NCBI RefSeq assembly: GCF_003570715.1
Contig: NZ_QXXQ01000008.1
Coordinates: 62,001 to 126,000, forward strand
Reading direction: 5' to 3'
DNA: 64,000 nucleotides
Origin: Gemmobacter lutimaris
GTDB lineage: Bacteria > Pseudomonadota > Alphaproteobacteria > Rhodobacterales > Rhodobacteraceae
Under the pieces are notes generated by a model. The model saw only the letters and a program-made list of their open reading frames with translations. It made no database searches and was not told the DNA's origin. The position numbers and the translations under genes are program-made. Of this stretch, positions 20,918-41,079 are shown in pieces. How positions within the stretch are numbered: the first letter of the stretch is position 1; the number at the start of each line of letters is the position of its first letter.

Positions 20918-20919
20918 CA

Positions 20920-23393: not shown

Positions 23394-23560
23394 CTTCGAT
23401 ACACCCCAGAAATCGAAGTCTGATTCTAGGGATAGCCGTGTGCGGTGCGGGCGTAAACCCATGGCAGATGCGGATCGGCCAAAGACGACATTTCAGGGTT
23501 TCCCCCGCCACCTGCCGTCATTGACCGATCCGCACCCATACGATGGCCCTGAGGGGATGT

Positions 23561-24883: not shown

Positions 24884-25011
24884 CGGTCGAGCTCCGGCAG
24901 AAGCGGCCATGGCCGCGGTGCATGAGCAGACAATGCCTGTCCCAGCGTCAGCGCATCGTCATTCCTGCGCGACGGCAGAAATGACGCAACACTTCAGGCG
25001 GGCAATGCCGA

Positions 25012-25674
25012 TCAAAAGACCGCCGTTTCCGGCCCTTCGGGGGTGAAATGCCGGGGGTAGAGCGCACCTGCGCCCGTCCAGACCGTGCGCAGCGCCTCGG
25101 CCGCGTCATAGGGATTGGCCATGGTCATCAGATCCAGCCAGACCCCTTCGACCGTGACCCGGATCAGCCGCCCCGCGCGGGCCGGGTTGTGGGCGTAGCC
25201 ATGCTCGGCATTCATCCGCGCGCAGATTCGTTCCAGCGTATCGTTGTAATGATCGTCGTTGGACCCGCAGCGCGCCTGATAGATCGGCCGGTTCTGGCTT
25301 TCCCCCCAGAACGAACACCATGCCGCCAGACGGCCGGGGGTGCAGATTGCCGGGTTGAAATCGGCCCGGATCAGCGCGGCAAGCTGATCCTCGGGCCGTG
25401 GCCCTGCCCTCTCAAGCGCGGATTGCCAGTTTTCGCGGTATTCATCTGACAGGTAGTCAAGCGTATCTGCCAGAAGTTTCGCTTTGGTTTCAAAGTGAAA
25501 CAGCACCAGCCCGTGCGACAGCCCCGCCTTGCGCGCGACCTCGGTCAGCGTGGTGCGCGAATAGCCGCGTTCGGCCAGCGTCTCGATCGTGGCCTCGATC
25601 AACTGGCTGCGCCGGGCCTCACGGCTGAGCGTCCGGGGCGGGCGCTTTTCATCGGTGGAAACGGGATCGGTCAC
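25012..25674 (-). CDS. TetR-family regulator, BetI-like
   Basis: 220 residues from a GTG at 25674 with GAGG five bases upstream; the much longer open frame upstream is not coding-like. N-terminal TetR helix-turn-helix (RRSQLIEATIETLAERGYSR, then VARKAGLSHGLVLFHF). The C-terminal segments AAWCSFWGESQNRPIY and NPARAGRLIRVTVEGVWLDL are those of BetI, the choline-sensing repressor. It is divergent from the class III aminotransferase gene, and a BetI-box-like sequence lies between them. It probably represses the whole 25.8-36.3 kb locus and responds to a quaternary-amine-like ligand. Confidence 0.85.
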   Translation of the reverse strand: MTDPVSTDEKRPPRTLSREARRSQLIEATIETLAERGYSRTTLTEVARKAGLSHGLVLFHFETKAKLLADTLDYLSDEYRENWQSALERAGPRPEDQLAALIRADFNPAICTPGRLAAWCSFWGESQNRPIYQARCGSNDDHYNDTLERICARMNAEHGYAHNPARAGRLIRVTVEGVWLDLMTMANPYDAAEALRTVWTGAGALYPRHFTPEGPETAVF

Positions 25675-25741
25675 GGGCGCCTCGGCAAAACAACGCTTCC
25701 GGTTTACCGCAAGCGGACGGGGGCGAAAAGCAAAAGTTCTG

Positions 25742-25761
25742 ATTGACAGTTCAGTCAGTCG
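25742..25761. promoter_or_regulatory. Operator copy 1 of the BetI-like locus
   Basis: ATTGACAGTTCAGTCAGTCG. It contains TGAC-N6-GTCA and, read on the reverse strand, matches the known BetI box ATTGAACGTTCAAT at 11 of 14 positions. It ends 45 bp before the aminotransferase start and lies 68 bp before the BetI-like gene. A second copy, identical outside the central 4 bases, lies at 29508-29527. Confidence 0.65.
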
Positions 25762-25805
25762 AGTGACAGGCTGACCGGAACAGCAACAACCCCGCGATAC
25801 CCCCA

Positions 25806-27158
25806 ATGATGCAGATGCCCCGCCGCGACCTGTCCCGTTCCAACGCCCAGTTCCGCCGCGCGGTACAACGGCTGCCCTTGGGCGTGTCCTCGACTTTCCG
25901 ATACTGGGGCGAGGACCGGACGATCTATCTGGCAGAGGGTAAGGGCGGCCGCATCCGCGACATCGACGGCAATCACTATGTCGATTACCGGCTGGGCTAT
26001 GGTCCGGCGATCCTGGGCTATGCCGATAATCGCGTGGATGCAGCCGCGCGCCGCGGAATGGAGGTCGGCGGCGTATTCGCCCTGTCCACCGAACGCGAGT
26101 TGGCAGTGGCAGACCGCATTGCCAAGATGGTGCCTTCGGCCGAGCTTGTGCGATTTTCCAACTCCGGCACCGAAGCGGTGATGGGCGCACTACGGCTGGC
26201 GCGGGCCTATACCGGGCGTGAAAGCTATCTGCTGGTGGAAGGCGGCTATCACGGGCTGTTCGACGCCGCGATGTGGCAGGCCGATGTGGAGGGTTGGGAC
26301 GCAGGCAGCAATGCCGACCCCGAAGTGGTGCCCTACGGCAAGGGTATTCCCCCGACCGTGCGCAAACTGGCGCATCTTGTGCCGATGAATGACATGCAGC
26401 GGCTGGAAGACACCTTCCGCAGACATGGCGATCAGTTGGCCGCCATGCTGATCGAACCAATTCAGGGCAATTGCTGCGCCATCTCTGCCCGCGCCGAATA
26501 TGTGCAACTGGCCCGCAAACTATGCGACCAATACGGCGTGCTTCTGATCATCGACGAGGTGAAGACCGGATTTCGTGTGGCGAAAGGCGGGGTGCAAAGC
26601 CTGCTGGGCGTGCGGCCCGACATTTCCACTTTCGCCAAGGCAATGGGCAACGGCTATCCCATTGCCGTCATAACCGGGCGCGCAGATGTCATGCGTTGTT
26701 TCCGCTGTGGCGGGGCAAGCCATGGCGGCACCTATACCGCCCATTCCGTCAGCCTTGCCGCCGCCGAGGCATGCCTGCGCATCCTTGACGAAACACCGGC
26801 GTTGGCGACTCTGGCCGATTACGGCGCGCGGCTGAAAACCGGGGTCAGCTCGATCCTTGATGCGCGGGGCATCGTGCATTCCTATACAGGGCATGATTCA
26901 ATGTTCGGCCTGTTCTTCGCAGCCGAGCCGCCCGACAATTACCGCGCCTGGAAGACATCGGATTATTCGTTCTACGATCAGATGGCCTATTTTCTGCACG
27001 ATCTGGGCGTGATCTGCGAACCGGATTCGCGCGAGCCTTGGTTCATGTGCGAAGCGCACGGGCTGGACCCTGCCTGTCTGACCGACACGCTGAAGGCGGT
27101 GGAAACCGCCGTTGACCTGACACTGGAACATCTTGAGACGGCCGAAAAAGCCTCCTGA
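25806..27158 (+). CDS. Class III aminotransferase (glutamate-1-semialdehyde aminotransferase-like)
   Basis: 450 residues. PLP-dependent class III fold with cofactor-binding SNSGTEAVMGALRLAR (119-134), D250-E251 in LLIIDEVKTGFR, and Schiff-base lysine K278 in STFAKAMGNGYP. The layout resembles glutamate-1-semialdehyde 2,1-aminomutase more than omega-transaminases, but the gene context is catabolic. Several methionines cluster at the start (25806, 25809); either may be used. First gene of the operon that continues with two Rieske oxygenases; probably removes or transfers the amino group of the imported compound or of a product after demethylation. Confidence 0.88.
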   Translation: MMQMPRRDLSRSNAQFRRAVQRLPLGVSSTFRYWGEDRTIYLAEGKGGRIRDIDGNHYVDYRLGYGPAILGYADNRVDAAARRGMEVGGVFALSTERELAVADRIAKMVPSAELVRFSNSGTEAVMGALRLARAYTGRESYLLVEGGYHGLFDAAMWQADVEGWDAGSNADPEVVPYGKGIPPTVRKLAHLVPMNDMQRLEDTFRRHGDQLAAMLIEPIQGNCCAISARAEYVQLARKLCDQYGVLLIIDEVKTGFRVAKGGVQSLLGVRPDISTFAKAMGNGYPIAVITGRADVMRCFRCGGASHGGTYTAHSVSLAAAEACLRILDETPALATLADYGARLKTGVSSILDARGIVHSYTGHDSMFGLFFAAEPPDNYRAWKTSDYSFYDQMAYFLHDLGVICEPDSREPWFMCEAHGLDPACLTDTLKAVETAVDLTLEHLETAEKAS

Positions 27159-27175
27159 CCCCCTCCCCTGCCGGA

Positions 27176-28324
27176 ATGCAACCGATGCAGCACGATCCTC
27201 ACCCGCTGTCGCCCCGCCTTGGTCATTGCCCCGAGGGGCTGCCACGCGCGGCCTATCTGACGCCGGAGTGGTACGAGCATGAGATGACGTCGGTCTTTGC
27301 CCATAACTGGGTGATGGCCGGGCGGGTGGCCGATTTCACCGCCGGAACGATGCGGCGCGTCACGGTCGGCGCGGCGCAGGTGATCGTGGGTTGTGACAGC
27401 GCGGGCAGCCTGTCCGCCTTTCACAACTCCTGTCCGCATCGCGGGTCAGAACTCTGCCGCGCCGAGGTCGAGCCGCTCGGCAAGCTGATCCGCTGCCCCT
27501 ATCACGCCTTCGCCTTTGCGTCCGGTGACGGGCGGCTGGTTGCCACCGGCCACGCAGTGCCCACGGCAGACTTCGACCGCGCGGCGCATGGGTTGAAACC
27601 TGTATCGCTGCGGGTCTGGAACGGCTTTCTGTTCCTGAATCTCTCGCCAGATCCCGGCCCTTTGCAGGCCGACGTCGGGCTGACGACGCTGGATAACTGG
27701 CCGATGGCGGGGCTGCTCACCGGCCACCGCTGGCAGGCCGAAATCGCCTGCAACTGGAAAACCTTCTGGGAAAACTATTCCGAATGCCTGCATTGCCCCG
27801 GCATCCACCCCGAGCTTTGCGCCATGGTTCCGGTCTACGGGCGCGGCATCATGGCGGCGAACGAGGCGCCGGGCTGGACACCCGACGCGCCGCCCGGCCC
27901 CAACCTGCGTCCCGGAGCGCAAAGCTGGACGATGGACGGCACCCCCTGCGGCCCGGACTTTGCGGGGCTGACCGAGGCTGAACGACAGGCAGGCTACAGC
28001 TTCGTCACCTTCTGGCCCACGGCCTATGTCGTGGCCCATGTCGATCATGTGCGATCCGTGCGCATCGAGCCGCTGGCGCCGGAACGCACGCGGCTGGTGG
28101 CCGAATGGCATTTCGCGCCCGATACGCTGGCGCAACCCGGCTTCGACCCGGCCGCCGTCGCCGCCTTCGCAAAAATCGTGCTGGAACAGGATGGCGCTGC
28201 GGCCGAGATGAACCAGCGCGGCATCCGCTCCCCCGCCTTCACGGCGGCGCGGCTCATGCCCGAGGAATACGAGATTCACCGCTTTCACCAATGGGTTCTG
28301 GCCGAAATGGAGGACCGCCCGTGA
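27176..28324 (+). CDS. Rieske non-heme iron oxygenase, GbcA-like
   Basis: 382 residues. Rieske [2Fe-2S] domain with CPHRGSELC and CPYHAF (C-x-H, C-x2-H ligands) and a mononuclear-iron motif ENYSECLHCPGIHPE. That motif is the one seen in glycine-betaine monooxygenase GbcA and in stachydrine/choline monooxygenase-type enzymes, which remove N-methyl groups or hydroxylate quaternary amines. It needs a ferredoxin-reductase partner, and none is encoded in the window. Stop overlaps the GTG start of the second Rieske gene. Confidence 0.9.
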   Translation: MQPMQHDPHPLSPRLGHCPEGLPRAAYLTPEWYEHEMTSVFAHNWVMAGRVADFTAGTMRRVTVGAAQVIVGCDSAGSLSAFHNSCPHRGSELCRAEVEPLGKLIRCPYHAFAFASGDGRLVATGHAVPTADFDRAAHGLKPVSLRVWNGFLFLNLSPDPGPLQADVGLTTLDNWPMAGLLTGHRWQAEIACNWKTFWENYSECLHCPGIHPELCAMVPVYGRGIMAANEAPGWTPDAPPGPNLRPGAQSWTMDGTPCGPDFAGLTEAERQAGYSFVTFWPTAYVVAHVDHVRSVRIEPLAPERTRLVAEWHFAPDTLAQPGFDPAAVAAFAKIVLEQDGAAAEMNQRGIRSPAFTAARLMPEEYEIHRFHQWVLAEMEDRP

Positions 28325-29538
28325 CCGAACTTCCCTATTCCGCATCCCCTGTCCCGAATGACTGGCACCGCAAGGGCCTGCCCGCATGGACCTATCACTC
28401 CGAGGCCCTGTTCGCGCTGGAGCGCGAAAAGCTGTTCCTGACGCATTGGCAACTGGCGGGACATGAATGCGACATCCCCAACCCCGGCGACTGGCTGAGC
28501 TTTGATCTGCTGGGTGAACGCGCCGTGATCATGCGCGGCGCCGATGGCGTGGTGCGGGCCTTCCACAACCTGTGCCGTCATCGCGGCGCAAGGGTGGTCG
28601 ATGGCGATTCCGGTCATTGCAAGGGCGCCATCGTCTGTCCGTTTCACGGCTGGGTCTATAATCTGGACGGCACCTTGCGCGGGGCGGCAAAGCCGTCCAG
28701 CTTCGGTGCCATGCAGCGCGAGGATTTCGGGCTGAAACCCATCGAGATGAGCCTGTTTCACGGCTTCATCTTCATTCGCTTCACCCCCGGCCCGCAGCCC
28801 GCTATCGCCGAGCTTCTGGCACCCTACGATGCCGATTTCACCGCCTACCGGCTGGGCGATCTGCTGCCGGTGCAGCTTCCGCACTGGGCCTCGGACCTTG
28901 CGGTAAACTGGAAATCGGTGCGTGACGTGGACAACGAGGGCTATCACGTCGCCATGGCGCACCCGGCACTGCAAGAGCTTTACGGCCGCACATACCGCGA
29001 CCTGTATCTGGAAAGTGGGTTGAACATTTCGCATGGCTACTTTGGCGACGCGCCAGGGCGCGGCTGGTCGGTGCGGCACTATGTGAAGCTGTCCCCCCCG
29101 CGTGCAGACCTGCCGCTGCATCTGCAACAGGCATGGACGTATTATGGGCTGTTTCCGAACACCGTCATCGCCATGACCCCGGAAGGGGCGCAGTTCTATC
29201 AGGATCTGCCGCTGAGCGTGGGAAAGACCCGGCTGACCGGGCGGCTTTACCGCTGGGCCGGTGAAACCCGTCAGGCGCGGGCGGCGCGCTATCTGGCCTA
29301 TCGGATCGACCGCGAAACCTCGGCCGAGGATCAGCAACTGTCGATCTGGTCAAATGAGTCGATGAAATCCTCGGCTTTCGAAGGGTTCCACCTGTCGGAT
29401 CTGGAATACGGGCTGCGCTGCCACCACGATGGCCTGCGCACGCTTTTGCCGGTGATGACGCAGGCGGATGCCCCGCCCGAGGACCGGATGGCAGCCGCGA
29501 ATGCAGAATTGACTTGCCAGTCAGTCGCAGCGCCGTAA
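28321..29538 (+). CDS. Second Rieske non-heme iron oxygenase
   Basis: 405 residues from the GTG at 28321, which overlaps the preceding TGA (GTGA). Rieske ligands in CRHRGARVV and CPFHGW; mononuclear iron residues in the DVDNEGYHVAMAHPAL helix, a variant of the N/D-x2-E-x3-H-x4-H motif. It is only distantly similar to the upstream enzyme, so the two likely do successive steps or form a hetero-oligomer. Its last codons carry operator copy 2. The substrate is unknown; N-demethylation or hydroxylation of a quaternary or tertiary amine is the leading idea. Confidence 0.88.
   Translation: MTELPYSASPVPNDWHRKGLPAWTYHSEALFALEREKLFLTHWQLAGHECDIPNPGDWLSFDLLGERAVIMRGADGVVRAFHNLCRHRGARVVDGDSGHCKGAIVCPFHGWVYNLDGTLRGAAKPSSFGAMQREDFGLKPIEMSLFHGFIFIRFTPGPQPAIAELLAPYDADFTAYRLGDLLPVQLPHWASDLAVNWKSVRDVDNEGYHVAMAHPALQELYGRTYRDLYLESGLNISHGYFGDAPGRGWSVRHYVKLSPPRADLPLHLQQAWTYYGLFPNTVIAMTPEGAQFYQDLPLSVGKTRLTGRLYRWAGETRQARAARYLAYRIDRETSAEDQQLSIWSNESMKSSAFEGFHLSDLEYGLRCHHDGLRTLLPVMTQADAPPEDRMAAANAELTCQSVAAP
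29508..29527. promoter_or_regulatory. Operator copy 2 of the BetI-like locus
   Basis: ATTGACTTGCCAGTCAGTCG, inside the last codons of the second Rieske gene and 46 bp before the binding-protein start. It equals copy 1 (25742-25761) at all positions outside the central four. It contains TGACT-N4-AGTCA. This suggests a second regulated promoter for the transporter half of the locus. Confidence 0.65.
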
Positions 29539-29572
29539 TCTGATCAAAAATCATAACACCAGGGAGAACGCC

Positions 29573-30676
29573 ATGAGACTGAACCGCCGCCATGCCCTGA
29601 TCGGATTGGGCGCCACGCTTGCAACGCCCTATGTGCGCCCATCCTGGGCTGCCGCCGGAAGTGTCAATGTCTACAACTGGTCGGATTATATCGGCGAAAC
29701 CACCATCGCCGATTTCGAGGCCGAAACCGGGATTGGCGTGGTCTATGACCTTTATGCCAGCTCCGAGGAAATGCAGGCCAAGATGCTGGCCGGTTCCTCG
29801 GGTTACGATGTGGTGCTTCAGGCCGGGCTGACGCTGCCGCAGGCGGTTCAGGCTGGCGTTTACCAGAAGATCGACCACAGTCGTCTGACGAACTGGGGCA
29901 ATCTGGACCCGGAAATCCTGAAGATCGTCGAAGGCTTCGACCCCGGCAACAGCCATGGCGTGCCCTACATGTGGGGCTCGGTCGGCATCACCTATAATCT
30001 GGACATGGTGAAGGAACGGCTGCCCGATGCCGACCTGAACAGCCTCGACACGCTGTTCAAACCCGAAAACGCGGCGAAGCTGGCGGATTGCGGCATCTCG
30101 ATCCTAGACAGCCCGACCGACATCGGCTTTGCCGTGCTGAAATGGCTGGGCATCAACCCCGACACCGCTGGCCCCGCCGAAATGGCGAAGATGGCCGAAG
30201 CTTTTGCGGCGATCCGTCCCCATATCGCCACCTTCGACAATTCCAACTATCTGACCGCCATCCCGAATGGCGAGCTTTGCGCGGTGAACAACTGGTCGGG
30301 CGACTATGGCGTGGCCAAAGCCCGCGCGGCGGAGGCCGGGATCGAGATGAACCTCGCCTATTTCGTGCCGCGCACAGGCGCCCCCGCATGGTTCGACCTG
30401 TGGAGCATGCCGACCGACGCGCCGAACACCGACAATGCCTACAAGTTCATCGACTACATGCTACGCGCCGAGGTGGCGGCCGCCTGCACCAATTACACCG
30501 GCTATGCCAATGCCAACAAGGCGGCAACCCCGTTGGTGGACCCCGCAATTGCCAGCGACCCGGCCGTCTATCCCGATGCCGAAACCCTGTCGCGGCTTTA
30601 CACGCCTCAGCCTCAAACGCCTGAACAGGAAGAGGCGATGACCCGCGTCTGGACCGAAATCAAGACGGGCGGCTGA
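29573..30676 (+). CDS. PotD/PotF-type ABC substrate-binding protein
   Basis: 367 residues. A twin-arginine-like leader (RLNRRHALIGLGATL) ends at SWA-AAG. The mature part shows the polyamine-binding-protein layout: VNVYNWSDYIGETTIADFE, YDLYASSEEMQAKMLAG, SHGVPYMWGSVGITYN. These proteins bind putrescine, spermidine or other cationic amines. GGGAGAA lies upstream of the start. The gene opens the transporter half of the locus and is probably driven by its own promoter near operator copy 2. Confidence 0.92.
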   Translation: MRLNRRHALIGLGATLATPYVRPSWAAAGSVNVYNWSDYIGETTIADFEAETGIGVVYDLYASSEEMQAKMLAGSSGYDVVLQAGLTLPQAVQAGVYQKIDHSRLTNWGNLDPEILKIVEGFDPGNSHGVPYMWGSVGITYNLDMVKERLPDADLNSLDTLFKPENAAKLADCGISILDSPTDIGFAVLKWLGINPDTAGPAEMAKMAEAFAAIRPHIATFDNSNYLTAIPNGELCAVNNWSGDYGVAKARAAEAGIEMNLAYFVPRTGAPAWFDLWSMPTDAPNTDNAYKFIDYMLRAEVAAACTNYTGYANANKAATPLVDPAIASDPAVYPDAETLSRLYTPQPQTPEQEEAMTRVWTEIKTGG

Positions 30677-30678
30677 TC

Positions 30679-31773
30679 ATGGCGGCCCCCGCCGAACCCT
30701 TTCTGCGCATCGAAGGGGTATCGAAGCGTTTCGGAAGTTTCCAGGCGGTGCGCGATGTGACGCTTGATGTCGCCAAGGGCGAGATCTTTTCGCTGCTTGG
30801 CGGCTCTGGCTGCGGCAAGACCACGCTATTGCGCATGCTGGCGGGGTTCGAGGAGCCCTCGGCCGGGCGCATCTTCCTTGACGGGCGCGACATGGCGGGG
30901 GTGCCGCCATGGAACCGCCCGGTGCATATGATGTTCCAGTCCTATGCGCTGTTCCCCCATATGACGGTCGAGCGGAACGTGGCCTACGGGCTGAAGCACG
31001 AACCGATGAGCCGCAGCGCCAAGGCCGAGCGCGTGCGCGAAATGTTGGAACTGGTGCAACTGACGCCTTTTGCCGCCCGCAAGCCGCATCAGATTTCCGG
31101 GGGGCAGCGGCAGCGCGTGGCACTGGCTCGCGCACTGGCACGGCAGCCGAAACTTCTGCTGCTGGACGAGCCGCTGGCCGCACTGGACAAGAAGCTGCGT
31201 GAACATACGCAATTCGAGCTGATGTCGATCCAGCAGCGCACCGGCGTCACCTTCATCGTGGTGACCCATGATCAGGAAGAGGCCATGACCCTTTCTGACC
31301 GCATCGCCGTGATGGACAAGGGCGAGGTGCGGCAGGTCGGCACCCCGAACGAGGTCTACGAATTCCCGAACAACCGCTTCGTGGCAGGCTTCATCGGCTC
31401 GATCAACACTTTCGAGGCGACGGTGATCGCGCGCGAGGGCGGCGCGCTGCGGCTGGCGGTGCCCGCCTTCGGGGCTGAGGTTCTGGCCCGTGACGTGCCG
31501 GGCGTCAGCCCCGGTCAGGCAGTGACCATGGCGCTGCGGCCCGAAAAGGCCGGCATCTCGAGAACTCGCCCCGAGACGGTTAATGCCTTTGAGGGCACGG
31601 TGAAAGACCTCGCCTATTTCGGCAAGGACAGCCTTTATCGCATCACCCTGCCCTCGGGCACGCTGGTGCAGGCTCATGCAGTGAATGCCCGGCGCGGTGC
31701 CGAGGTGGCCGACTGGGACGATGCGGTCTGGCTGGGGTTTGAGCCGGAGTCCGTTCTCGTGTTGGCGGAGTAG
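30679..31773 (+). CDS. Polyamine-type ABC transporter ATP-binding protein (PotA/PotG type)
   Basis: 364 residues. Walker A GGSGCGKTT, Q-loop MMFQSYALFPH, signature [11 protein letters not shown], Walker B into LLLDEPLAALDKKLR, H-loop VVTHDQEEAM. The C-terminal third is a TOBE domain. Two bases separate it from the binding-protein gene. Energises the permease pair encoded next. Confidence 0.93.
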   Translation: MAAPAEPFLRIEGVSKRFGSFQAVRDVTLDVAKGEIFSLLGGSGCGKTTLLRMLAGFEEPSAGRIFLDGRDMAGVPPWNRPVHMMFQSYALFPHMTVERNVAYGLKHEPMSRSAKAERVREMLELVQLTPFAARKPHQISGGQRQRVALARALARQPKLLLLDEPLAALDKKLREHTQFELMSIQQRTGVTFIVVTHDQEEAMTLSDRIAVMDKGEVRQVGTPNEVYEFPNNRFVAGFIGSINTFEATVIAREGGALRLAVPAFGAEVLARDVPGVSPGQAVTMALRPEKAGISRTRPETVNAFEGTVKDLAYFGKDSLYRITLPSGTLVQAHAVNARRGAEVADWDDAVWLGFEPESVLVLAE

Positions 31774-31777
31774 GCCG

Positions 31778-32689
31778 ATGCTTGCGCGTCTCTCCCGCTG
31801 GTTCGATCGTCGTGGCTGGGCCGACATCCTGATCGGCGCACCCTATCTGTGGCTGCTGATCTTCTTCCTGCTGCCCTTCCTGATCGTCGCGGCCATGAGC
31901 CTAGGGACGAAGACCCCGACCGCCCCGCCCATCTCTTTCGGCGGGGAATACCCGCTGCTGAACTGGGATTCCTACGCCCGTGTGCTGGGTGACGGGCTTT
32001 ACCTGCGCGCCTTTCTGACCTCGCTGGCGAATGCGGGGCTGGCCATGGTTCTGTGTCTGCTGATCGGCTATCCGATGGCGCTGGGGCTGTGCCGGGTGTC
32101 GAATGGCTGGCGCAATATCCTGCTCATGCTGGTGATCCTGCCGTTCTGGACCTCGTTCCTGTTGCGCGTCTATGCGTGGATGGGGCTGATGGGGCGGAAC
32201 AGCTGGTTCAACCGGCTGCTGACAGATAGCTGGAACCTGCTGGTCCCGGTGGACTGGGCGGTGAAATCCGTGCCGATGATGAACACGAATTTCGCTGTCG
32301 TGCTGGTCATGGTCTATACCTACCTGCCCTTCATGATCCTGCCGCTTTACGCCAGCCTTGAACGGCTGGACCCGACGCTGGACGAGGCGGCGATGGATCT
32401 GGGAAGCCGCCCGTTTCAGGTGTTCCGCGACGTGACGCTGCCGCAATCGGTGCCGGGAATCGTCGCGGGCGGCATGCTGGTCTTCATCCCGGCTGCGGGC
32501 GAACTGGTCATTCCGACACTGGTGGGCGATGCCTCCAGCCCGATGATCGGGCGGCTGATCTCGGACGAGTTTTCAGCCGCACGCAACTGGCCCATGGCCT
32601 CGGCCGTGGCTGTGGTCCTGCTGCTCATCATGGTGGTGCCGACCATGATCTACAGCCATTATCAGGCCAAGGCGGAGGGGTCGAAATGA
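31778..32689 (+). CDS. Polyamine-type ABC permease (PotB/PotH type)
   Basis: 303 residues from the ATG at 31778 (GGAG seven bases upstream). Six predicted helices; EAA loop DEAAMDLGSRPFQVFRDVTLP. An in-frame extension upstream overlaps the ATPase gene and is rejected. Stop overlaps the next permease start. Confidence 0.92.
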   Translation: MLARLSRWFDRRGWADILIGAPYLWLLIFFLLPFLIVAAMSLGTKTPTAPPISFGGEYPLLNWDSYARVLGDGLYLRAFLTSLANAGLAMVLCLLIGYPMALGLCRVSNGWRNILLMLVILPFWTSFLLRVYAWMGLMGRNSWFNRLLTDSWNLLVPVDWAVKSVPMMNTNFAVVLVMVYTYLPFMILPLYASLERLDPTLDEAAMDLGSRPFQVFRDVTLPQSVPGIVAGGMLVFIPAAGELVIPTLVGDASSPMIGRLISDEFSAARNWPMASAVAVVLLLIMVVPTMIYSHYQAKAEGSK

Positions 32690-33525
32690 ACCGCCGCCCG
32701 GTCTTCCTGATTACCGTCCTGTGCTTCGGCTTTGCCTTCTTCTACATCCCGATCCTGTCGATGATCGTCTACAGCTTCAACGCTTCGCGGCTGGCAACGG
32801 TCTGGGGCGGGTTCTCGACCAAGTGGTATGTCTCGCTGATGTCGAACCGGCAGGTGATCGAGGCGTTGATGCTGTCGCTGAAGATCGCGCTGGTTTCGGC
32901 CACCATCGCGACCATCCTTGGCACGATGACTGGCATCACGCTGGCACGGTTTGGCAAGTTCCGGGGGCGGATGCTGTTCACCGGGCTGGTGACCGCACCC
33001 TTGATCATGCCCGAGGTCATCACCGGGATTTCCAGCCTGATCTTCTTCATCCTGATGGCCGACTGGATCGGCTGGCCCGGCAGCCGGGGCTTCACTACCA
33101 TCACGCTGGCGCATATCACCTTTTCCATGGTCTTCGTCTCGACCATCGTACAGGCGCGCATGTTGCAGGCGGACCGCGCGATCGAGGAGGCGGCGATGGA
33201 TCTGGGCAGCCGACCTTGGCAGGTGCTGTTCGACGTGACGCTGCCAGTCATCAGCCCGGCCATCCTGTCGGGCTGGCTCCTGGCCTTCACCATCTCGCTG
33301 GACGATGTGGTCATCACCTCCTTCACCACCGGGCCGGGGGCGACGACGCTGCCGCTGCTCATCTGGTCCAAGGTCAAGCTGGGGGTGACGCCCGACATCA
33401 ACGCGCTGGCAACGCTTATGGTGCTGACCGTGGGTATGGGGGTCGTGGTGGCCGGGATCGTGATGAACCGTGCCGAGGCACGCAGGCGCGCCGATGAACG
33501 CATGGCCTATCGCAGCAATGACTGA
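32686..33525 (+). CDS. Polyamine-type ABC permease (PotC/PotI type)
   Basis: 279 residues, six helices, EAA loop EEAAMDLGSRPWQVLFDVTLP. The EAA loop strongly resembles that of its partner, as is usual for PotH/PotI pairs. It overlaps the partner by 4 bp and the DMSP-lyase-family gene by 8 bp. Confidence 0.92.
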   Translation: MNRRPVFLITVLCFGFAFFYIPILSMIVYSFNASRLATVWGGFSTKWYVSLMSNRQVIEALMLSLKIALVSATIATILGTMTGITLARFGKFRGRMLFTGLVTAPLIMPEVITGISSLIFFILMADWIGWPGSRGFTTITLAHITFSMVFVSTIVQARMLQADRAIEEAAMDLGSRPWQVLFDVTLPVISPAILSGWLLAFTISLDDVVITSFTTGPGATTLPLLIWSKVKLGVTPDINALATLMVLTVGMGVVVAGIVMNRAEARRRADERMAYRSND

Positions 33526-34369
33526 CGCGCGCTGCCTTCTTCACTGCCCGCTGGGTGTGCCGGGATCAGGGCGTGTGCGCTACGGCGCGGCGATGGCGCT
33601 GTGGCGCGACGGGCTGCTGTCAGAGCCGCAGTTGGAGGTCTACCGCGAGGCCGCAGCCCATGATGCCCGCGACCCCGCGCCGATCCTTGCCGAACGCCAT
33701 CTGCCGCCGGTGCCTGCCTTGCCGGAGGCTTCGCCGCTGGCAGGTCTTTACCATGCCCTGCGCGACTATCTTCTGGCGCTGGATCATCCTGGCGCGGCCG
33801 AGGTGCGCACGGGCTTGCCGCCCGATCCGGGCAGGCCTTCCGCGCCCCGGTCAAACGGCAACACAGTGGTAGATCGCTGGCTCGCCCCGGCACTGGCCAC
33901 GCTTGACGGCGGCCACCTCGGATTGGCGCAGGCAATAGCGGCTGCCGCGCCGCTGCTGGAATGGCAGCGCTACGATGCCTATCCGCCGGACGAGATCGGC
34001 CCGGCTTTCGCCGAAGGCCATGCCTTTGCCCCGGTGTTGGGTGACGGCGCCCCCTTCGCAGCGGATGATTTCGACATGGGCCTGTTCCTGATCGCGCCCG
34101 GCCTGCTTTACCGCGATCACGCCCATCCGGCGCCTGAACTTTATGCGCCCCTCACCGGCCCGCATGGCTGGCGCTTCGGGGCAGACCGACCACTTGTGAT
34201 GAAACCCGCGCATATGCCGGTCTGGAACCCGCCGGAGCAACCGCATCTGACCCGCGTGGGGTCCCTGCCCTTCCTTGCCATCTATGTCTGGACGCGCGAC
34301 GTGACCCTGCCCGCCCGTATCCTGCCCGCAACCGACTGGGACAGGCTGGAGATGCTGCCCGATGTCTGA
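33518..34369 (+). CDS. DMSP-lyase-family cupin protein
   Basis: 283 residues from the ATG at 33518. The C-terminal half is a cupin of the dimethylsulfoniopropionate lyase family (DddQ/DddL type): metal-site cluster YRDHAHPAPELY with H201, H203, E207 and catalytic-type Y209, and the second motif NPPEQPHLTRV with H243, then LAIYVW. DddQ is about 200 residues, so there is an extra N-terminal region of about 80. Family members cleave DMSP to acrylate and DMS. Here the neighbours are amine-processing genes, so the natural substrate may be a different onium compound. Confidence 0.75.
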   Translation: MTDARCLLHCPLGVPGSGRVRYGAAMALWRDGLLSEPQLEVYREAAAHDARDPAPILAERHLPPVPALPEASPLAGLYHALRDYLLALDHPGAAEVRTGLPPDPGRPSAPRSNGNTVVDRWLAPALATLDGGHLGLAQAIAAAAPLLEWQRYDAYPPDEIGPAFAEGHAFAPVLGDGAPFAADDFDMGLFLIAPGLLYRDHAHPAPELYAPLTGPHGWRFGADRPLVMKPAHMPVWNPPEQPHLTRVGSLPFLAIYVWTRDVTLPARILPATDWDRLEMLPDV

Positions 34370-35969
34370 CCTGCTGATCCACAATGCGCGCATCCGCACC
34401 ATGGATCCGGCCAATCCGATGGCCGACTGGCTTCTGTGCCGTAACGGACGGGTTGTGGCGCTTGGCCTTGGCCACCCGCCCGAAATGGCGGAGATGATCG
34501 ACGCGGGCGGTCGGCTGGTGCTGCCGGGGTTTCAGGACGCGCATATCCATCTGCTGTCCGGTGGCACCGACCTTGCGACTGCGGCCCAGCTTTACGAGGT
34601 GGCGGATGAAGCGGCGCTGCTGGAGGCATTATCGGCCCATGCGCGGGCAAAACCCGATCTGCCAGTTATTCTGGGGGCAGGCTGGCAACCGGGAATTTTC
34701 GGCGATCACAACCTGACCGCCGCGCTGCTGGACCGGGCGGTGCCCGACAGGCCGGTGGTGATCTTCGACAGCAGCTATCATAACGCCTGTCTGAACAGCC
34801 GCGCGCTGGAAATCGCCGGGATCGGCGCCGATACAGCCGACCCGCCGAATGGCCATATCCTGCGCGATGCGGGCGGGCGAGCCACCGGCATGCTGCATGA
34901 AGAGGCGATCCCCTGGGCCACCGCGCGCCTGCCGCAACTGACCGAGGCGCATCTGATGCAGGGGCTGATGACCGGGCAGGCCCATGCCAATGCCCATGGC
35001 CTGACCGGGGTGCTGGACCCGAAGATCACCGCCACCGAAGCCGCGCTCTACGGACGCGCCGCGCGTGAAGGTGCCCTGTCCCTGCGTGTTGCGGGCGCGG
35101 CGCTGGTGACCGAGGCGGATACACCGGAAACTGCGCTGGCCCGGCTGACCGCGCTGCGTGCCGGACATCCGGGGCCGGAATTTCATGTGCATTCCGCCAA
35201 ATTCTTCATGGATGGCGTGTTTGAAAACCGCACCGCCGCCCTTCTGGCCGATTATGCCGATGCCCCCGGCAATGCACCCTGCATGTTCGGCGCCGACCAG
35301 ACCGCCGCGCTGTTCACCGCGCTTGATGCCGCGCGCTTTGCGATCCATGTCCACGCGATAGGCGATGCTGCCACCCGCCGCGCCATCGCCGGACTAGAGG
35401 CCGCGCGTGCGGCAAATGGCCCCTGGCCCGCGCAGCACCAGCTTGCGCATCTGCAACTGGTGGACCCGGCCGATCATGCCCGGCTGGCAGGGCTTGCCAC
35501 CGCGAATATCCAGCCGCTTTGGGCGCGGCGCGATCCGGTGGTGCCGGACATCGCGCTGGACATGATCGGCCCCTCCCGGCTGGGCGACACCTATGCGTTC
35601 CGCAAGATGCTGGACGCCGGGGCCGACTGGTGCCTGTCATCTGACTGGCCGGTCAGCACACTGAACCCGTTCGAGATCATCGAAACCGCCGTCACCCGGC
35701 AGGCCCGGCGTGTCGAGGGCCCAAAGCCACCCTTCCTGCCCGATCAGGCCCTGACAGTTCAGGAATGCGTGCTGGGCTATACCACCCATGCCGCCCGCGC
35801 CTGTTGGCGCGAAGGATTTACCGGCATGCTGCGCCCCGGCTTTTCCGCCGATCTGATCGTGCTGGACCGCGACATCTTCACCTGCCCCGCCGACGAAATT
35901 TCAGCCACCGAAGTTCTGCTGACGCTGTTCAGAGGCTTTGTCGTCCACAGTTCCCCCCGCCTGACATGA
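34362..35969 (+). CDS. YtcJ-type metal-dependent amidohydrolase
   Basis: 535 residues. Amidohydrolase superfamily, YtcJ subgroup: LPGFQDAHIHLLSGG (HxH metal pair), later HSAKFFMDG (metal-bridging lysine region), HVHAIGDAATRRAI, HQLAHLQL and SSDWPVST. Overlaps the DMSP-lyase-family gene by 8 bp. The subgroup hydrolyses amide or cyclic N-C bonds of varied substrates (formamide-type, N-substituted). It may release an amine or carboxylate from the compound degraded by this locus. Confidence 0.88.
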   Translation: MSDLLIHNARIRTMDPANPMADWLLCRNGRVVALGLGHPPEMAEMIDAGGRLVLPGFQDAHIHLLSGGTDLATAAQLYEVADEAALLEALSAHARAKPDLPVILGAGWQPGIFGDHNLTAALLDRAVPDRPVVIFDSSYHNACLNSRALEIAGIGADTADPPNGHILRDAGGRATGMLHEEAIPWATARLPQLTEAHLMQGLMTGQAHANAHGLTGVLDPKITATEAALYGRAAREGALSLRVAGAALVTEADTPETALARLTALRAGHPGPEFHVHSAKFFMDGVFENRTAALLADYADAPGNAPCMFGADQTAALFTALDAARFAIHVHAIGDAATRRAIAGLEAARAANGPWPAQHQLAHLQLVDPADHARLAGLATANIQPLWARRDPVVPDIALDMIGPSRLGDTYAFRKMLDAGADWCLSSDWPVSTLNPFEIIETAVTRQARRVEGPKPPFLPDQALTVQECVLGYTTHAARACWREGFTGMLRPGFSADLIVLDRDIFTCPADEISATEVLLTLFRGFVVHSSPRLT

Positions 35970-35980
35970 AGGAGACGCAT

Positions 35981-36340
35981 ATGGGCTTTTCCCCCGAAGA
36001 CCGCCGCATCGCCAATATCCACGAGGCCGAATATACCCCCTTCGTCTATCCCGATGGCATGGCGCTGGGGGATGACATCCTGCAACTGGACGATGGCCGC
36101 CCACTGGGCGAGGGCTTTCACGTCTACCGGATGCCTGCGGGCATGACCACGCGCCGCCATATCCACAACGGTCACGAGCAGTTTCTGATCCTTGAGGGTG
36201 AACTGATCGAGGATGACGGCACCGTGTTCCGCCCCGGCGATCTGGTGTTCTACCGCGATGGCACGGAACACAACTCCTACACCCCCAACGGCTGCCTTCT
36301 GGCGGTGCATATCGCAGGACCAGAGATTGGCACGGAATAA
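35981..36340 (+). CDS. Small cupin protein
   Basis: 119 residues from the ATG at 35981, chosen because AAGGAG lies six bases before it; an ATG overlapping the amidohydrolase stop is the alternative. Single cupin barrel with metal-site residues H60, H62, E66 (RRHIHNGHEQFLILEGEL) and H97 in RDGTEHNSY. Such small cupins isomerise, dioxygenate or sense small molecules. Last gene of the locus. A weak 6-bp hairpin (CACGGA ... TCCGTG, 36331-36353) follows the stop. Confidence 0.82.
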   Translation: MGFSPEDRRIANIHEAEYTPFVYPDGMALGDDILQLDDGRPLGEGFHVYRMPAGMTTRRHIHNGHEQFLILEGELIEDDGTVFRPGDLVFYRDGTEHNSYTPNGCLLAVHIAGPEIGTE

Positions 36341-36484: not shown

Positions 36485-37888
36485 ATGGATTACAAGATGC
36501 TCATCAACGGCAAGTTGGTGGCGGGTGAGCGTATGCTTGACGTCATCAACCCGGCCACGGAAGAGGTGTTCGCGCGCGTGCCGCATGCGACCGGGGCGCA
36601 GCTGGACGAGGCCGTCGCCGCTGCCACTGCCGCGCAAAAGGCTTGGGCGAAAACCAGCATGGCCGAGCGCCGCGCCAAGATCGGCGAACTGGCCGCCACC
36701 ATCGGCGCCGCTGCCGACGACCTTGCGCGCACCATCACGCTGGAACAGGGCAAACCGCTGCCCGAGGCGGCGGGTGAGGTGGAATGGAGCCAAGGTTACC
36801 TTCTGCATACTGCGACGCTGGACCTGCCCGACCGGATCATTCAGGACGATGCGCAGTTCCGCATCGAGACCCGGCACAAGCCGCTGGGCGTGGTCGGCGC
36901 CATCGTGGCATGGAACTTTCCGCTGCTGCTGGCCTGCTGGAAGATCGGTCCGGCGCTGATGGCGGGGAATGCGCTCATCCTCAAACCTGCGCCAACAACG
37001 CCAGTCACGGCGCTGAAGCTGGGCGAGATCTGCGCGCGGGTCTTTCCCGCCGGTCTGGTCAACGTGCTGACCGACGATAACGACCTTGGCCCGCAAATGA
37101 CCGCCCATCCCGGCATCGCCAAGATCGGCTTCACCGGATCGTCGCAGACCGGCAAACGCATCATGGCAACCGCCGCCGACACCATGAAGCGCGTGACGCT
37201 GGAAATGGGCGGCAATGATCCGGCCATCGTGCTGCCCGATGTCGATGTGCGGACGACCGCCGAGAAGGTGTATGGCGGTGCCTTCCTCAATGCCGGACAG
37301 GTCTGCATGGCAGTGAAGCGTGCCTATGTGCATGACGCGATCTATGATGATTTCTGCGATGCGCTGGCCGATATTGCCAAGGCAGCCGTGGTCGATGACG
37401 GGCTGAAACAGGGCACCACCGTCGGCCCGATCCAGAACAAGGCGCAGTTTGAAAAGGTGAAGGGCTATCTGGAAGATGCCCGCACAAGCGGTCGCATCAT
37501 CGCCGGGGGCGAGACGCGCACCGGCAAGGGTTACTTCATCAGCCCGACCATCGTGCGCGACGTGACAGACGGCCAGCGCATCGTGGATGAGGAACAGTTC
37601 GGCCCGATCCTGCCGGTGATCCGCTTCAGCGACGTGAATGACGTGATCGCGCGGGCCAATGCCTCGGACTACGGGCTGGGCGGGTCGGTCCATTCCGCCG
37701 ATCTGGACAAGGCGACCGAGATCGCAGGCCAGATCGAATCCGGCACCATCTGGGTGAACCAGCAGCTCAACATCGGGCCACATATCCCGATGGCGGGTTT
37801 CAAAGGTTCGGGTCTGGGGGTGGAACAGTCGGTCGAGGGGCTGGCCGAATATACCCAGATGCAGGTCATCAACGTCGCCCGCGGCTGA
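36485..37888 (+). CDS. NAD(P)-dependent aldehyde dehydrogenase
   Basis: 467 residues. Catalytic C274 in [11 protein letters not shown], general base E240 in [11 protein letters not shown], cofactor loop FTGSSQTGK and the NFPLLL segment are intact. GGGAGGA precedes the ATG. It is followed by an acyl-CoA synthetase gene and faces the amine dehydrogenase cluster, so a likely job is to oxidise the aldehyde released from an amine to the acid. The sequence itself does not fix the aldehyde. Confidence 0.92.
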
Positions 37889-37959: not shown

Positions 37960-39672
37960 ATGTCTCATGCCATGGCGGCAGGCGCCGCCCCGCGCGAAGG
38001 GCTGTCGCATGTCAAAGGCCCGATGGAGCCCGCCCTGAAACAGGCCACCATCCCGCAGCTTCTGCGCGAGACCGTCGCCGCCCATGGCGATGCAGAGGCG
38101 CTGGTGTTCTGCGAAAGCGGACAACGGCTGACCTATAACACCTTCGCGCAAGAGGTGGATCGCTGCGCCGCCGGCCTTCTGTCGCTGGGGGTGACGCAGG
38201 GCGACCGCGTTGGCATCTGGTCACCCAATCGGCTGGAATGGGTGCTGACGCAATTCGCCACCGCGCGCATCGGCGCCCTTCTGGTGAACATCAATCCCGC
38301 CTACCGCCTGTCGGAACTGGAATATGCGCTGAACAAGGTAGGCTGCCGCGTGCTGGTCACGGCCTGTTCGTTCAAAAGCTCGGATTATGTGGGCATGATC
38401 CGCGAACTGGCACCGGAACTGGGCCGTGACGGGCCGCTGGCTTCCGCCCGCCTGCCGGAGTTGCGCCATGTCGTGGTGATGGGCGATGACGTCCCGCCCG
38501 AGATGATCGCCTTCACCGAACTGACCGGCCGCGCCACCCCTGCCCTTCTGGTGCGGCTGGACGGCATCGAGGCCGGGCTGACGCCTTCGGACCCGATCAA
38601 CATCCAGTTCACCTCGGGCACGACGGGAATGCCCAAGGGCGCCACGCTGTCGCATTTCAACATCGTCAACAACGCCCGTTTCGTGACCGACCGCATCGCG
38701 CTGACCCCGGCTGACCGGCTGGTCATTCCGGTGCCGCTGTATCACTGCTTCGGCATGGTGATGGGTGTGCTGGGCGCGGTCAGCAAGGGCGCGAAAATGA
38801 TCTTCCCCGGCGAGGGCTTCACCCCCGCGCAGACGCTTGACGCCATCGCGGCGGAAGGTGCCACCGCCTGTTACGGCGTGCCTACCATGTTCGTCGCCAT
38901 GTTGCAGGAACTGGATCGCCAGCACCGCGACCTGTCCACTCTGCGCACCGGCATCATGGCGGGAGCACTGTGCCCCATCGAGGTGATGAAACGCGTGAAC
39001 CGCGACATGCACATGCGCGAGGTGACGATCTGCTATGGCATGACCGAAACCTCGCCCGTCTCATTCCAAAGCTTTACCGACGATCCCACCGAAAAGCGCT
39101 GCGAAACCGTGGGCCGCATCCATCCGCATCTGGAGGTGAAGCTGGTGGACGCCGAGGGCAACACCGTGCCGGTGGGCGAAAAGGGCGAGCTGTGGACGCG
39201 CGGCTATTCGGTGATGGCGGGCTACTGGGGCGACGAGGCCGCAACGGAGGCCAGCATCACAGACGGCTGGATGCACACCGGCGATCTGGGGGTGCTGGAT
39301 GCGGAAGGCTTTTGCACCATCGTCGGACGGGTGAAGGACATGATCATCCGGGGCGGCGAGAACATCTATCCGCGCGAGATCGAGGAATTCCTGATCCGCC
39401 ACCCCGAGGTCAGCGATGTGCAGGTCTTCGGCATCCCCGACGATACCTTCGGGGAAGAGGTCTGCGCCTGGGTCGTGCTGAAACCCGGCAGCACGCTGGC
39501 GGCCGAAAGTCTGCGCGATCACTGCAAGGGCCAGATCGCGCATTTCAAGATCCCGCGTCATGTGCGGATCGTGACTGACCTGCCGCTGACCGCCACAGGC
39601 AAGCCGCAGAAATTCGTCATGCGCGACCGGATGCAGGAGATGCTGCGCAACGAGGCGGCTCAGAACCCGTGA
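37960..39672 (+). CDS. AMP-dependent acyl-CoA synthetase
   Basis: 570 residues from the ATG at 37960 (GGAGATCGAGG upstream; an earlier TTG frame is rejected). Adenylate-forming enzyme of the fatty-acyl-CoA synthetase group: P-loop [27 protein letters not shown], and the hinge plus lysine region [19 protein letters not shown] with a C-terminal TGKPQKF lysine. Activates a carboxylate to its CoA thioester. It probably takes the acid made by the upstream dehydrogenase. Its stop overlaps the converging tetraheme cytochrome gene by 13 bp. Confidence 0.92.
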
Positions 39673-41075: not shown

Positions 41076-41079
41076 CCCG

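What the first reader, a model, noticed from the sequence alone, without database searches (positions are those of the whole stretch)
25012..36340. Possible undescribed catabolic locus for a quaternary-amine or onium compound
Seen: one regulator (BetI-like) and ten tightly packed forward genes in the order class III aminotransferase, two dissimilar Rieske oxygenases, PotFGHI-type importer, DMSP-lyase-family cupin, YtcJ amidohydrolase, small cupin. Known: BetI senses choline; GbcA-type Rieske enzymes demethylate or hydroxylate betaines; the Pot family imports cationic amines; DddQ-type cupins cleave DMSP. Inference: together they import and dismantle a cationic, N-methylated or sulfonium compound by a route I cannot match to a known pathway. 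No choline dehydrogenase, sarcosine oxidase or Rieske reductase is nearby.
Basis: partly seen in the sequence, partly recalled or inferred. Interest (0 to 1): 0.78.

Follow-up and report, generated by a model that had tools for sequence, protein, structure and literature searches.

The report
Conserved methylated-amine uptake and breakdown locus
A regulated run of ten bacterial genes, found in many relatives and in other soil and water bacteria, most likely imports a positively charged methylated amine and strips its methyl groups off, by a route that no paper I could search has assigned to a substrate.

Summary
In detail: one divergent TetR/BetI-like gene (25012-25674) and ten packed forward genes (25806-36340). 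The set is conserved. In a sample of 295 genera of the family, 40 carry the second Rieske oxygenase (Rsk2); a polyamine-type ABC importer lies near it in 33 of the 37 loci examined. One operator (TGATTGAC-N4-CARYCA) lies in 48 of 49 TetR-flanked intergenic regions. The first ~65 residues of the "DMSP-lyase" protein form a domain that occurs without a fused cupin in seven other genera. Many relatives carry an FAD/FAD/GcvT demethylase-like module between the aminotransferase and Rsk1; the window locus lacks it. Another lineage has OYE-type flavoenzymes and another class III aminotransferase instead. Best reading: import, stepwise oxidative N-demethylation and transamination of a quaternary or N-methylated cationic amine, possibly a methylated diamine (the importer pocket keeps most putrescine-binding residues but has Asp for Glu185 in 57 of 57). 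It is not the known glycine-betaine route: that system (GbcA/GbcB-like, OpuAC) lies elsewhere on the contig. The substrate is not proven; the methyltransferase of relatives, the amidohydrolase and the two cupins remain unexplained. More distant Rsk2 relatives often lack the importer.

The parts
25012..25674 (-). TetR-family regulator with BetI-type C-terminal domain; divergent from the operon
   Evidence: BetI model 95 bits, cut-off 201; TetR at >=40% identity in 57 of 80 relatives' loci
25740..25757 (+). Probable operator TGATTGACAGTTCAGTCA in the TetR/AT3 intergenic region, overlapping a TTGACA -35-like hexamer
   Evidence: TGATTGAC-N4-CARYCA in 48 of 49 TetR-flanked intergenic regions, window included; the only zero-mismatch site of TGATTGACWNNNCARTCA in the genome
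25806..27158 (+). AT3: class III aminotransferase, GntE / glutamate-1-semialdehyde type
   Evidence: orthologues 62-84% identical in 28 of 80 loci
27176..28324 (+). Rsk1: Rieske oxygenase with Group V motif ECLHC
   Evidence: ECLHC in 48 of 48
28321..29538 (+). Rsk2: Rieske oxygenase, CntA/GbcA-like, without the Cys pair (EGYHV)
   Evidence: the gene by which relatives' loci were collected
29573..30676 (+). PotF-type periplasmic binding protein
   Evidence: pocket analysis
30679..31773 (+). PotG-type ABC ATPase (named from its place, sequence and linkage; not scanned against a family library)
31778..32689 (+). PotH-type permease (not scanned against a family library)
32686..33525 (+). PotI-type permease (not scanned against a family library)
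33518..33718 (+). N-terminal domain of DLL (about 65 aa, SGRxRY...AAM), found without a fused cupin in other genomes
   Evidence: no Pfam or NCBIfam match for residues 1-111
33518..34369 (+). DLL: N-terminal domain fused to a DddQ-like DMSP-lyase-family cupin
   Evidence: all six DddQ catalytic residues kept in the window protein; AF2 model pLDDT 94, nearest folds DddQ
34362..35969 (+). YtcJ-type Amidohydro_3 hydrolase
   Evidence: in 23 of 80 loci
35966..36340 (+). Cup: small Cupin_7 (ChrR-like) protein
   Evidence: in 15 of 80 loci
36485..37888 (+). Aldehyde dehydrogenase (best named model aminobutyraldehyde DH, below cut-off); neighbour, not a conserved part
37960..39672 (+). Acyl-CoA ligase; neighbour, not a conserved part

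Best explanation
A substrate-inducible catabolic locus for a quaternary or N-methylated cationic amine. The TetR/BetI-like protein sits on one operator between itself and the operon and represses until the amine (or a product) binds. The Pot-type ABC importer brings the cation in. Rsk2 (and Rsk1 where present) hydroxylates an N-methyl group, which leaves as formaldehyde, with electrons from a reductase encoded elsewhere (candidate: the GbcB-like protein on the same contig). The remaining methyl groups are removed by amine-oxidising modules: in many Rhodobacterales relatives two CrtO/CrtI-family flavoproteins with a free-standing GcvT-like folate protein; in the type C loci OYE-type and, in one, DAO-type flavoenzymes. 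In the window genome this step must be done by unlinked enzymes. A class III aminotransferase then turns the primary amine into an aldehyde. The likely ligand class is a diamine-like cation with one methylated end. Shown: gene set, conservation, shared operator motif, catalytic motifs. Inferred: repression, every reaction, the order of steps, and the substrate class.
For: (1) Linkage: 40 of 295 family genomes carry Rsk2; polyamine-type importer genes lie in the locus in 33 of 37 examined and a class III aminotransferase (>=42-45% identity to AT3 or AT3b) in 24 of 37. (2) Rsk1 has the Group V CxxC pair and the bridging Glu in 48 of 48; both Rieske proteins score best against GbcA among NCBIfam models (156 and 130 bits, cut-off 670); first PDB hits are a demethylase that I recall as Stc2 (4qup, Rsk1) and carnitine monooxygenase CntA (Rsk2) (PMC10952381, passages). 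(3) FADox1 and GcvT are both present in 23 and both absent in 21 of 44 type A loci with >=7.5 kb on both sides. GcvT resembles the folate parts of TMAO demethylase, GcvT and sarcosine/dimethylglycine oxidases and keeps a conserved Asp-Asp segment. (4) Type C loci have OYE-type flavoenzymes (L190, L191, L194) and a DAO-type one (L190) instead; OYE-type genes also lie by type B loci L059 and L061. MttB-family genes lie near four of 80 loci (only L064's was scanned), choline-kinase-like genes near six. (5) In PotF-type binding proteins W37, W244, W276, Y314 and D278 are invariant, D39 and D247 are Asp in 56 and 55 of 57 (Glu in the rest), and position 185 is Asp in 57 of 57 and in three type C proteins, whereas Glu185 is >=96% conserved among 250 PotF homologues (PMC8666671, passages). 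(6) BetI-like regulator with a shared operator motif.
Against: The window copy lacks FADox1 and close GcvT orthologues anywhere in its genome (best 31% and 40%; FADox2 was searched only in the window), so the scheme is incomplete here. A phosphobase-type SAM methyltransferase conserved in relatives (31 of 80 loci) does not fit pure demethylation. YtcJ, DLL and Cup have no assigned step. Rsk2, the core oxygenase, lacks the Group V Cys pair in 76 of 76. Type B binding proteins have lost D39, D247 and D278, so the diamine inference does not carry over to them; their residue at position 185 aligns ambiguously. More distant Rsk2 relatives are often without the importer: four of six class-level loci read (L154, L155, L157, L159; Rsk2 38-42%) lack it. 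Glutamine-synthetase-like genes at some loci are not clearly gamma-glutamylpolyamine synthetases. No substrate was tested.
Confidence: 0.55

Rival explanations
1. Ordinary diamine/polyamine uptake and catabolism: the importer takes putrescine-like amines, the aminotransferase starts the breakdown, and the Rieske enzymes act on some other position of the carbon chain.
For: Pot-type importer with most putrescine-binding residues kept; AT3b belongs to the PRK07036 'aminotransferase' model, with PRK07480 the next best; PuuR-like regulator and AptA omega-aminotransferase 9 kb downstream in the window; glutamine-synthetase-like genes at some loci.
Against: E185D in 57 of 57 departs from PotF homologues; the Group V Rieske motif and the GcvT-, MttB- and OYE-type genes of relatives are not needed for plain putrescine; the glutamine-synthetase-like genes are ambiguous between GlnA types and PuuA.
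Confidence: 0.17
2. A variant of a known pathway for glycine betaine, carnitine, choline or proline betaine.
For: Closest named Rieske families are GbcA, CntA and (as I recall 4qup) Stc2; BetI-like regulator; a distant relative (41%) of Rsk2 lies beside genes that look carnitine-type (L154, read by eye only).
Against: The same genome has a separate GbcA-like (490 bits, cut-off 670) + GbcB-like (370 bits, cut-off 500) pair with an OpuAC-type betaine-binding protein and ProV-type ATPase. Rsk1 and Rsk2 score far lower against GbcA, and the importer is of another family.
Confidence: 0.13
3. A biosynthetic or modifying locus: the SAM methyltransferase N-methylates an imported amine and the oxidoreductases tailor it to an osmolyte or signal.
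For: PMT-type methyltransferase in 31 of 80 loci, though not in the window locus; AT3 is closest to GntE, a biosynthetic aminotransferase; the flavoproteins of relatives are closest to carotenoid ketolase/desaturase models.
Against: Importer plus divergent TetR is typical of inducible catabolism (general knowledge); 26 of 44 type A loci with full flanks show no methyltransferase; demethylation-type folate proteins. Export or product-assembly genes were not noticed but not searched for either.
Confidence: 0.1
4. Sulfonium (DMSP-like) catabolism centred on the DddQ-like cupin.
For: All six DddQ catalytic residues are kept and the model's best structural matches are DddQ.
Against: In seven genera the N-terminal domain has no fused cupin; one of these (L046) does have a separate DddQ-like cupin ORF next to it on the other strand. 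Many genera in the list are, as I recall, from soil and fresh water. Acrylate genes were not searched for.
Confidence: 0.05

Closest known systems
Glycine betaine catabolism (GbcAB, DgcAB, SoxBDAG; pathway recalled, GbcA/GbcB models from NCBIfam)
   Same: Rieske oxygenase first, then flavin/folate amine demethylases; logic of stepwise N-demethylation
   Different: Importer family, Rieske families (156/130 bits against a 670 cut-off), two Rieske genes, aminotransferase end, cupins, amidohydrolase; the genome has its own GbcA/GbcB-like system
Group V Rieske oxygenases Stc2 (stachydrine) and CntA (carnitine)
   Same: Rieske motif and bridging Glu; Rsk1 has the Cys-X-X-Cys pair
   Different: Rsk2 lacks the pair; different operon partners
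DddQ-type DMSP lyases / lyase-like cupins (PF16867)
   Same: Fold and all six catalytic residues
   Different: About 23% identity, extra N-terminal domain that occurs apart from the cupin elsewhere, operon context without recognised DMSP genes
PotFGHI / SpuD putrescine importers
   Same: Aromatic box and acidic residues at positions 39, 247 and 278
   Different: Glu185 replaced by Asp in 57 of 57; distal Ser85 Ala in 35 and Ser87 Leu/Ile/Met in 52 of 57
Guanitoxin aminotransferase GntE
   Same: Closest named relative of AT3 (426 bits, cut-off 525)
   Different: Below the cut-off; neighbours are an importer and oxygenases, not the guanitoxin genes as I recall them
Heterotetrameric sarcosine oxidase / dimethylglycine oxidase / TMAO demethylase
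   Same: GcvT-type folate domain beside an oxidase (in relatives' loci)
   Different: FADox1/2 are CrtO/CrtI-family flavoproteins and GcvT is free-standing; module absent from the window locus, FADox1 from the window genome

Membership tests
Group V (quaternary ammonium) Rieske oxygenases | Cys-X-X-Cys pair beside the mononuclear iron (present in some Group V members) | tested here: met
   Rsk1: ECLHC in 48 of 48 sequences; feature from PMC10952381 passages
Group V (quaternary ammonium) Rieske oxygenases | Same pair in Rsk2 | tested here: not met
   EGYHV in 76 of 76
Group V (quaternary ammonium) Rieske oxygenases | Bridging Glu (E205 of CntA) and Rieske CxH...CxxH | tested here: met
Group V (quaternary ammonium) Rieske oxygenases | Activity on a quaternary amine | not testable with these tools
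   needs enzyme assay
Glycine betaine monooxygenase GbcA | NCBIfam equivalog cut-off 670 bits | tested here: not met
   Rsk1 156, Rsk2 130 bits
BetI | TIGR03384 cut-off 201 bits | tested here: not met
   95 bits
PotF putrescine-binding protein | Proximal D39, D247; aromatic box W37, W244; D278 | tested here: met
   W37, W244 and D278 in 57 of 57; D39 in 56 and D247 in 55, Glu in the rest
PotF putrescine-binding protein | Distal Glu185 | tested here: not met
   Asp in 57 of 57
PotF putrescine-binding protein | NCBIfam PotF cut-off 636 bits | tested here: not met
   341 bits
DddQ DMSP lyases | Tyr120, His123, His125, Glu129, Tyr131, His163 | tested here: met
   48, 48, 50, 50, 50, 50 of 50 (residues from PMC4437653 passages)
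DddQ DMSP lyases | Cleaves DMSP to DMS and acrylate | not testable with these tools
   needs assay
GntE guanitoxin aminotransferase | NF041362 cut-off 525 bits | tested here: not met
   426 bits
Polyamine catabolic loci of the Puu type | gamma-glutamylputrescine synthetase in the locus | tested here: inconclusive
   not seen in the window locus; glutamine-synthetase-like genes at L156, L209, L210, L212 and beside L054; the three scanned (two of L156, one of L054) are ambiguous between GlnA types and PuuA

The most novel reading that the evidence does not exclude
The locus is a new pathway for an N-methylated diamine or polyamine. Its core is a Rieske oxygenase that works with a previously unrecognised ~65-residue partner domain. 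That domain has been fused to a DddQ-like cupin, which eliminates an amine from a beta-ammonio-propionate intermediate (the nitrogen isostere of DMSP), so that the 'DMSP lyase' fold would serve nitrogen onium compounds. In relatives, paired CrtO-family flavoproteins plus a free GcvT protein would form a new type of folate-linked amine demethylase.
Probability: 0.12. Interest if true: 0.8.

Novelty: new variant of a known kind. Interest (0 to 1): 0.6.

Why it matters
If right, it adds an unassigned and fairly common route (Rsk2 in 40 of 295 sampled genera of the family) for turning over methylated amines in soil and water bacteria. It also gives the 'DMSP lyase family' and 'polyamine transporter' annotations at such loci a different meaning, names a small domain to test as a Rieske partner, and offers a free-standing GcvT + paired-flavoprotein demethylase for biochemists to reconstitute.

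Tried and rejected
Tried without result: a paper describing this gene set or its substrate (none among the listings seen); the paper on DMSP-lyase-like cupins that I recalled (not held; known to me only from memory). Homarine, guanitoxin and trigonelline pathways were considered from memory and dropped for lack of matching genes. A search for further members of the regulon: one exact operator; 22 other sites with one or two mismatches, of which only the one-mismatch site was looked at (beside a fatty-acid-synthase-type gene by eye, probably accidental). A first impression that Cup and the FADox/GcvT module exclude each other (0 of 11 Cup loci among 44 full-flank loci) is not absolute: two shorter loci left out of that count, L081 and L122, have both. 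The N-terminal domain profile found only the window among 385 class genomes; that search scores few candidates for so short a model, so this is weak evidence of absence. PuuA/PuuB labels for L156 genes were withdrawn after NCBIfam (ambiguous glutamine-synthetase family; pipecolate-oxidase-like). A mafft alignment put Asp at position 185 of the type B binding proteins, but HMMER alignments put Tyr there; not used.

Rows dropped before counts: in the 80-locus tally hits below per-gene identity thresholds were dropped and many loci are truncated; the 44 loci are those with >=7.5 kb on both sides of Rsk2 and without AT3b. Of the 40 Rsk2 genomes I examined neighbourhoods in 37: G155 and G273 have Rsk2 on a separate contig that I did not fetch, and G164 is cut by its contig end. 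Of the 22 Rsk2-positive genomes of the class sample I fetched loci for 10 and read six; two further genomes were fetched and read later; L158, L160, L162 and L163 were fetched but not read. The class and family lists are cut for weak matches or misses. Gene calls in relatives come from a home-made caller plus tblastn and will miss or mis-start some genes.

Full report
What is there. The window lies at G000:C74:62001-126000 of a 4.66 Mb genome, in the same family as Fuscovulum (relative G104:C3 and the plasmid NZ_CP124537.1 have the same length and match coordinates). One TetR/BetI-like gene (25012-25674, minus) faces ten packed forward genes (25806-36340): a class III aminotransferase (AT3), Rieske oxygenases Rsk1 and Rsk2, PotF, PotG, PotH, PotI, a DMSP_lyase-family protein (DLL), a YtcJ-type amidohydrolase and a small cupin (Cup). 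Five junctions overlap by 4-8 bases.

Conservation. A search of 295 family genomes (one per genus) with DLL gave 12 full-length matches, window included, and seven more listed matches covering only about 52-83 residues at the N-terminus (the list is cut for weak matches). With the Rsk2 profile, 40 of 295 have a match at E <= 1e-80. All 19 genomes with the DLL N-terminal region are among those 40 (hypergeometric p about 3e-19; genera are not independent). In 17 of the 19 both lie on one contig; in G155 and G273 they are on different contigs of fragmented assemblies. I examined 37 of the 40 neighbourhoods. Polyamine-type importer genes lie in the locus in 33 of 37; none was seen in L202, L205, L206 and L213, of which L205 and L206 are short. 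A class III aminotransferase is present in 24 of 37.

Full form of the locus. In many relatives AT3 is followed by two CrtO/CrtI-family flavoproteins (FADox1, FADox2) and a GcvT-type folate protein before Rsk1, and a phosphobase-type SAM methyltransferase (PMT) often follows DLL or YtcJ. In the 80 best Rsk2 loci of genome contigs (chosen by Rsk2, 590 relatives found, many loci truncated) the counts are: PotF 60, PotG 60, DLL 58, PotH 58, TetR 57, PotI 56, Rsk1 52, FADox2 39, FADox1 38, GcvT 32, PMT 31, AT3 28, YtcJ 23, Cup 15, AT3b 13, choline-kinase-like 6. In 44 type A loci with at least 7.5 kb on both sides, FADox1 and GcvT are both present in 23 and both absent in 21. AT3 occurs only with Rsk1 (22 of 22). 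The window has AT3 directly before Rsk1 and no detectable remnant of the module. Its genome has no FADox1 orthologue (best 31%) nor a close GcvT (best 40%; that protein is a TMAO demethylase, 1229 bits against a cut-off of 1100). The absence is not unusual: 21 of the 44 lack it.

Other lineages. Rhizobiaceae (Shinella, Ensifer, Rhizobium, Mesorhizobium), Parasedimentitalea and others have a second type (B): Rsk2 with a different class III aminotransferase (AT3b, PRK07036 model), a PotD-like binding protein with PotG/H/I-like partners and, in many, a TetR gene, FADox1-FADox2-GcvT and PMT; in L059 the N-terminal domain is an 81-residue gene after GcvT. A third type (C; L190, L191, L192, L194) has Rsk2 directly followed by the stand-alone N-terminal domain and a PotF-type importer nearby; OYE-type flavoenzymes are in L190, L191 and L194, a DAO-type one in L190, and AT3b in L191 and L194. 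What the types share is Rsk2, a polyamine-type importer and often a class III aminotransferase; the amine-oxidising enzymes in between differ. That is the main ground for reading the whole as stepwise N-demethylation followed by transamination; the reactions themselves are inferred.

Limits of the pattern. In a class-wide sample 22 of 385 genomes have an Rsk2 relative (E <= 1e-60). Of eight such loci read, L156, L161, L166 and L168 (Rsk2 48-54%) have the importer, and L154, L155, L157 and L159 (38-42%) do not. The linkage therefore belongs to the closer relatives of Rsk2, not to every similar Rieske gene.

Rieske enzymes. Rsk1 and Rsk2 are 23% identical. Both keep the Rieske ligands and the bridging Glu. 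Rsk1 has ECLHC in 48 of 48, the Cys-X-X-Cys reported for some Group V (quaternary ammonium) oxygenases; Rsk2 has EGYHV in 76 of 76 (PMC10952381 passages). First PDB hits are 4qup, named monooxygenase/demethylase and recalled by me as Stc2 (Rsk1), and carnitine monooxygenase CntA (Rsk2). Neither reaches the GbcA cut-off. A GbcA-like (490 bits, cut-off 670) and GbcB-like (370 bits, cut-off 500) pair with an OpuAC-type binding protein and ProV-type ATPase lies at about C74:155-161 kb. So glycine betaine probably has its own system, and a reductase may be available in trans (inference).

Importer. Residue roles in PotF are from PMC8666671 (passages). In 57 sequences (window + 56 relatives) W37, W244, W276, Y314 and D278 are invariant; D39 is Asp in 56 and D247 in 55, Glu in the rest. 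Glu185 is Asp in all 57. The distal Ser85 is Ala in 35, and Ser87 is Leu, Ile or Met in 52; the proximal Ser38 is Ala in 36. Three type C proteins also have Asp185, with Glu at position 39. The same paper reports Glu185 at >=96% among 250 PotF homologues. A shortened distal acid with hydrophobic neighbours would suit a diamine with one bulky methylated end. Type B binding proteins have lost D39, D247 and D278, which speaks against carrying this inference over to all types.

DLL. The cupin half keeps DddQ's Tyr120, His123, His125, Glu129, Tyr131 and His163 (48, 48, 50, 50, 50, 50 of 50; residues from PMC4437653 passages). The AlphaFold2 model (mean pLDDT 94) matches DddQ best, at 23% identity. 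The first ~65 residues, which no Pfam or NCBIfam model matches, occur without a fused cupin beside Rsk2 or PotI in seven other genera; in one of them (L046) a separate DddQ-like cupin ORF lies next to it on the other strand, and in another (L045) the stretch overlaps the start of the methyltransferase gene and one search reports a stop inside it. The domain thus seems more constant than the cupin. Its function is unknown; a partner of Rsk2 is my guess from linkage.

Regulation. TGATTGAC-N4-CARYCA lies in 48 of 49 TetR-flanked intergenic regions, window included. In the window genome the pattern TGATTGACWNNNCARTCA occurs once without mismatch, at 25740-25757, overlapping a TTGACA hexamer (23 sites in all with up to 2 mismatches, 1 in the reversed-pattern control). 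Binding is inferred.

Surroundings. Downstream lie an aldehyde dehydrogenase, an acyl-CoA ligase, a TTQ-type amine dehydrogenase cluster (39660-44349), a PuuR-like regulator and an AptA aminotransferase. They suggest an amine-catabolism region, but the first two were not found in relatives' loci and the others were not looked for there.

Judgement. Quaternary or N-methylated amine catabolism is the best reading (0.55, unchanged after checking); a plain polyamine locus, a betaine/carnitine variant, a biosynthetic locus and a sulfonium locus are rivals. The substrate, the role of the methyltransferase of relatives, the amidohydrolase and both cupins, and the order of steps remain open. Eight literature searches aimed at the gene set or candidate substrates listed no paper that assigns it; two more looked for residue roles. 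I judged by listings, and subscription papers are largely outside that library. Of papers I saw passages (PMC10952381, PMC8666671, PMC4437653) and one outline with abstract (PMC12478193).

Noticed in passing
window 39660-44349 (minus): Methylamine/aromatic-amine-dehydrogenase-like (TTQ) cluster: heavy chain 43201-44349, MauE- and MauD-like genes (by position and eye), light chain 41520-42047, then c-type cytochromes; both chains score below the NCBIfam methylamine dehydrogenase cut-offs, so the true amine may differ.
   Followed up: partly
window 45702-47736: PuuR-like regulator (138 bits, cut-off 211) beside an AptA omega-aminotransferase (720 bits, cut-off 500).
   Followed up: no
window 19376-21483: Two adjacent ORFs of 513 and 189 aa with no Pfam match at E <= 0.001, next to a BTAD/SARP-type regulator (21459-23462) and a serine-palmitoyltransferase/AONS-like gene (23561-24910).
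   Followed up: no
G000:C74 about 152.5-160.7 kb (L175): MttB-family gene, LysR-type gene by eye, and divergent from them an OpuAC-type ABC system followed by GbcA-like and GbcB-like genes.
   Followed up: partly
L157, L159, L063: In more distant genomes a Rieske protein 38-39% identical to Rsk2 is next to a FADox1-like flavoprotein (39-40%; L157, L159); Sphingobium sp. TomTYG65 has a similar pair (Rieske 37.7%, annotated FAD-dependent oxidoreductase; L063): a possible minimal two-gene relative.
   Followed up: no
L078, L080, L083, L085, L095, L107: A choline-kinase-like gene sits near the TetR gene in six of 80 loci, with a long FAD protein (GcvT-like part seen in one, L053) in five of them; the copy scanned, from L040, has GntI as nearest NCBIfam model.
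   Followed up: no
L124 (CP059262.1): A genome titled Exiguobacterium profundum MAG carries a typical type A copy of the locus, probably a mislabelled or contaminated assembly.
   Followed up: no
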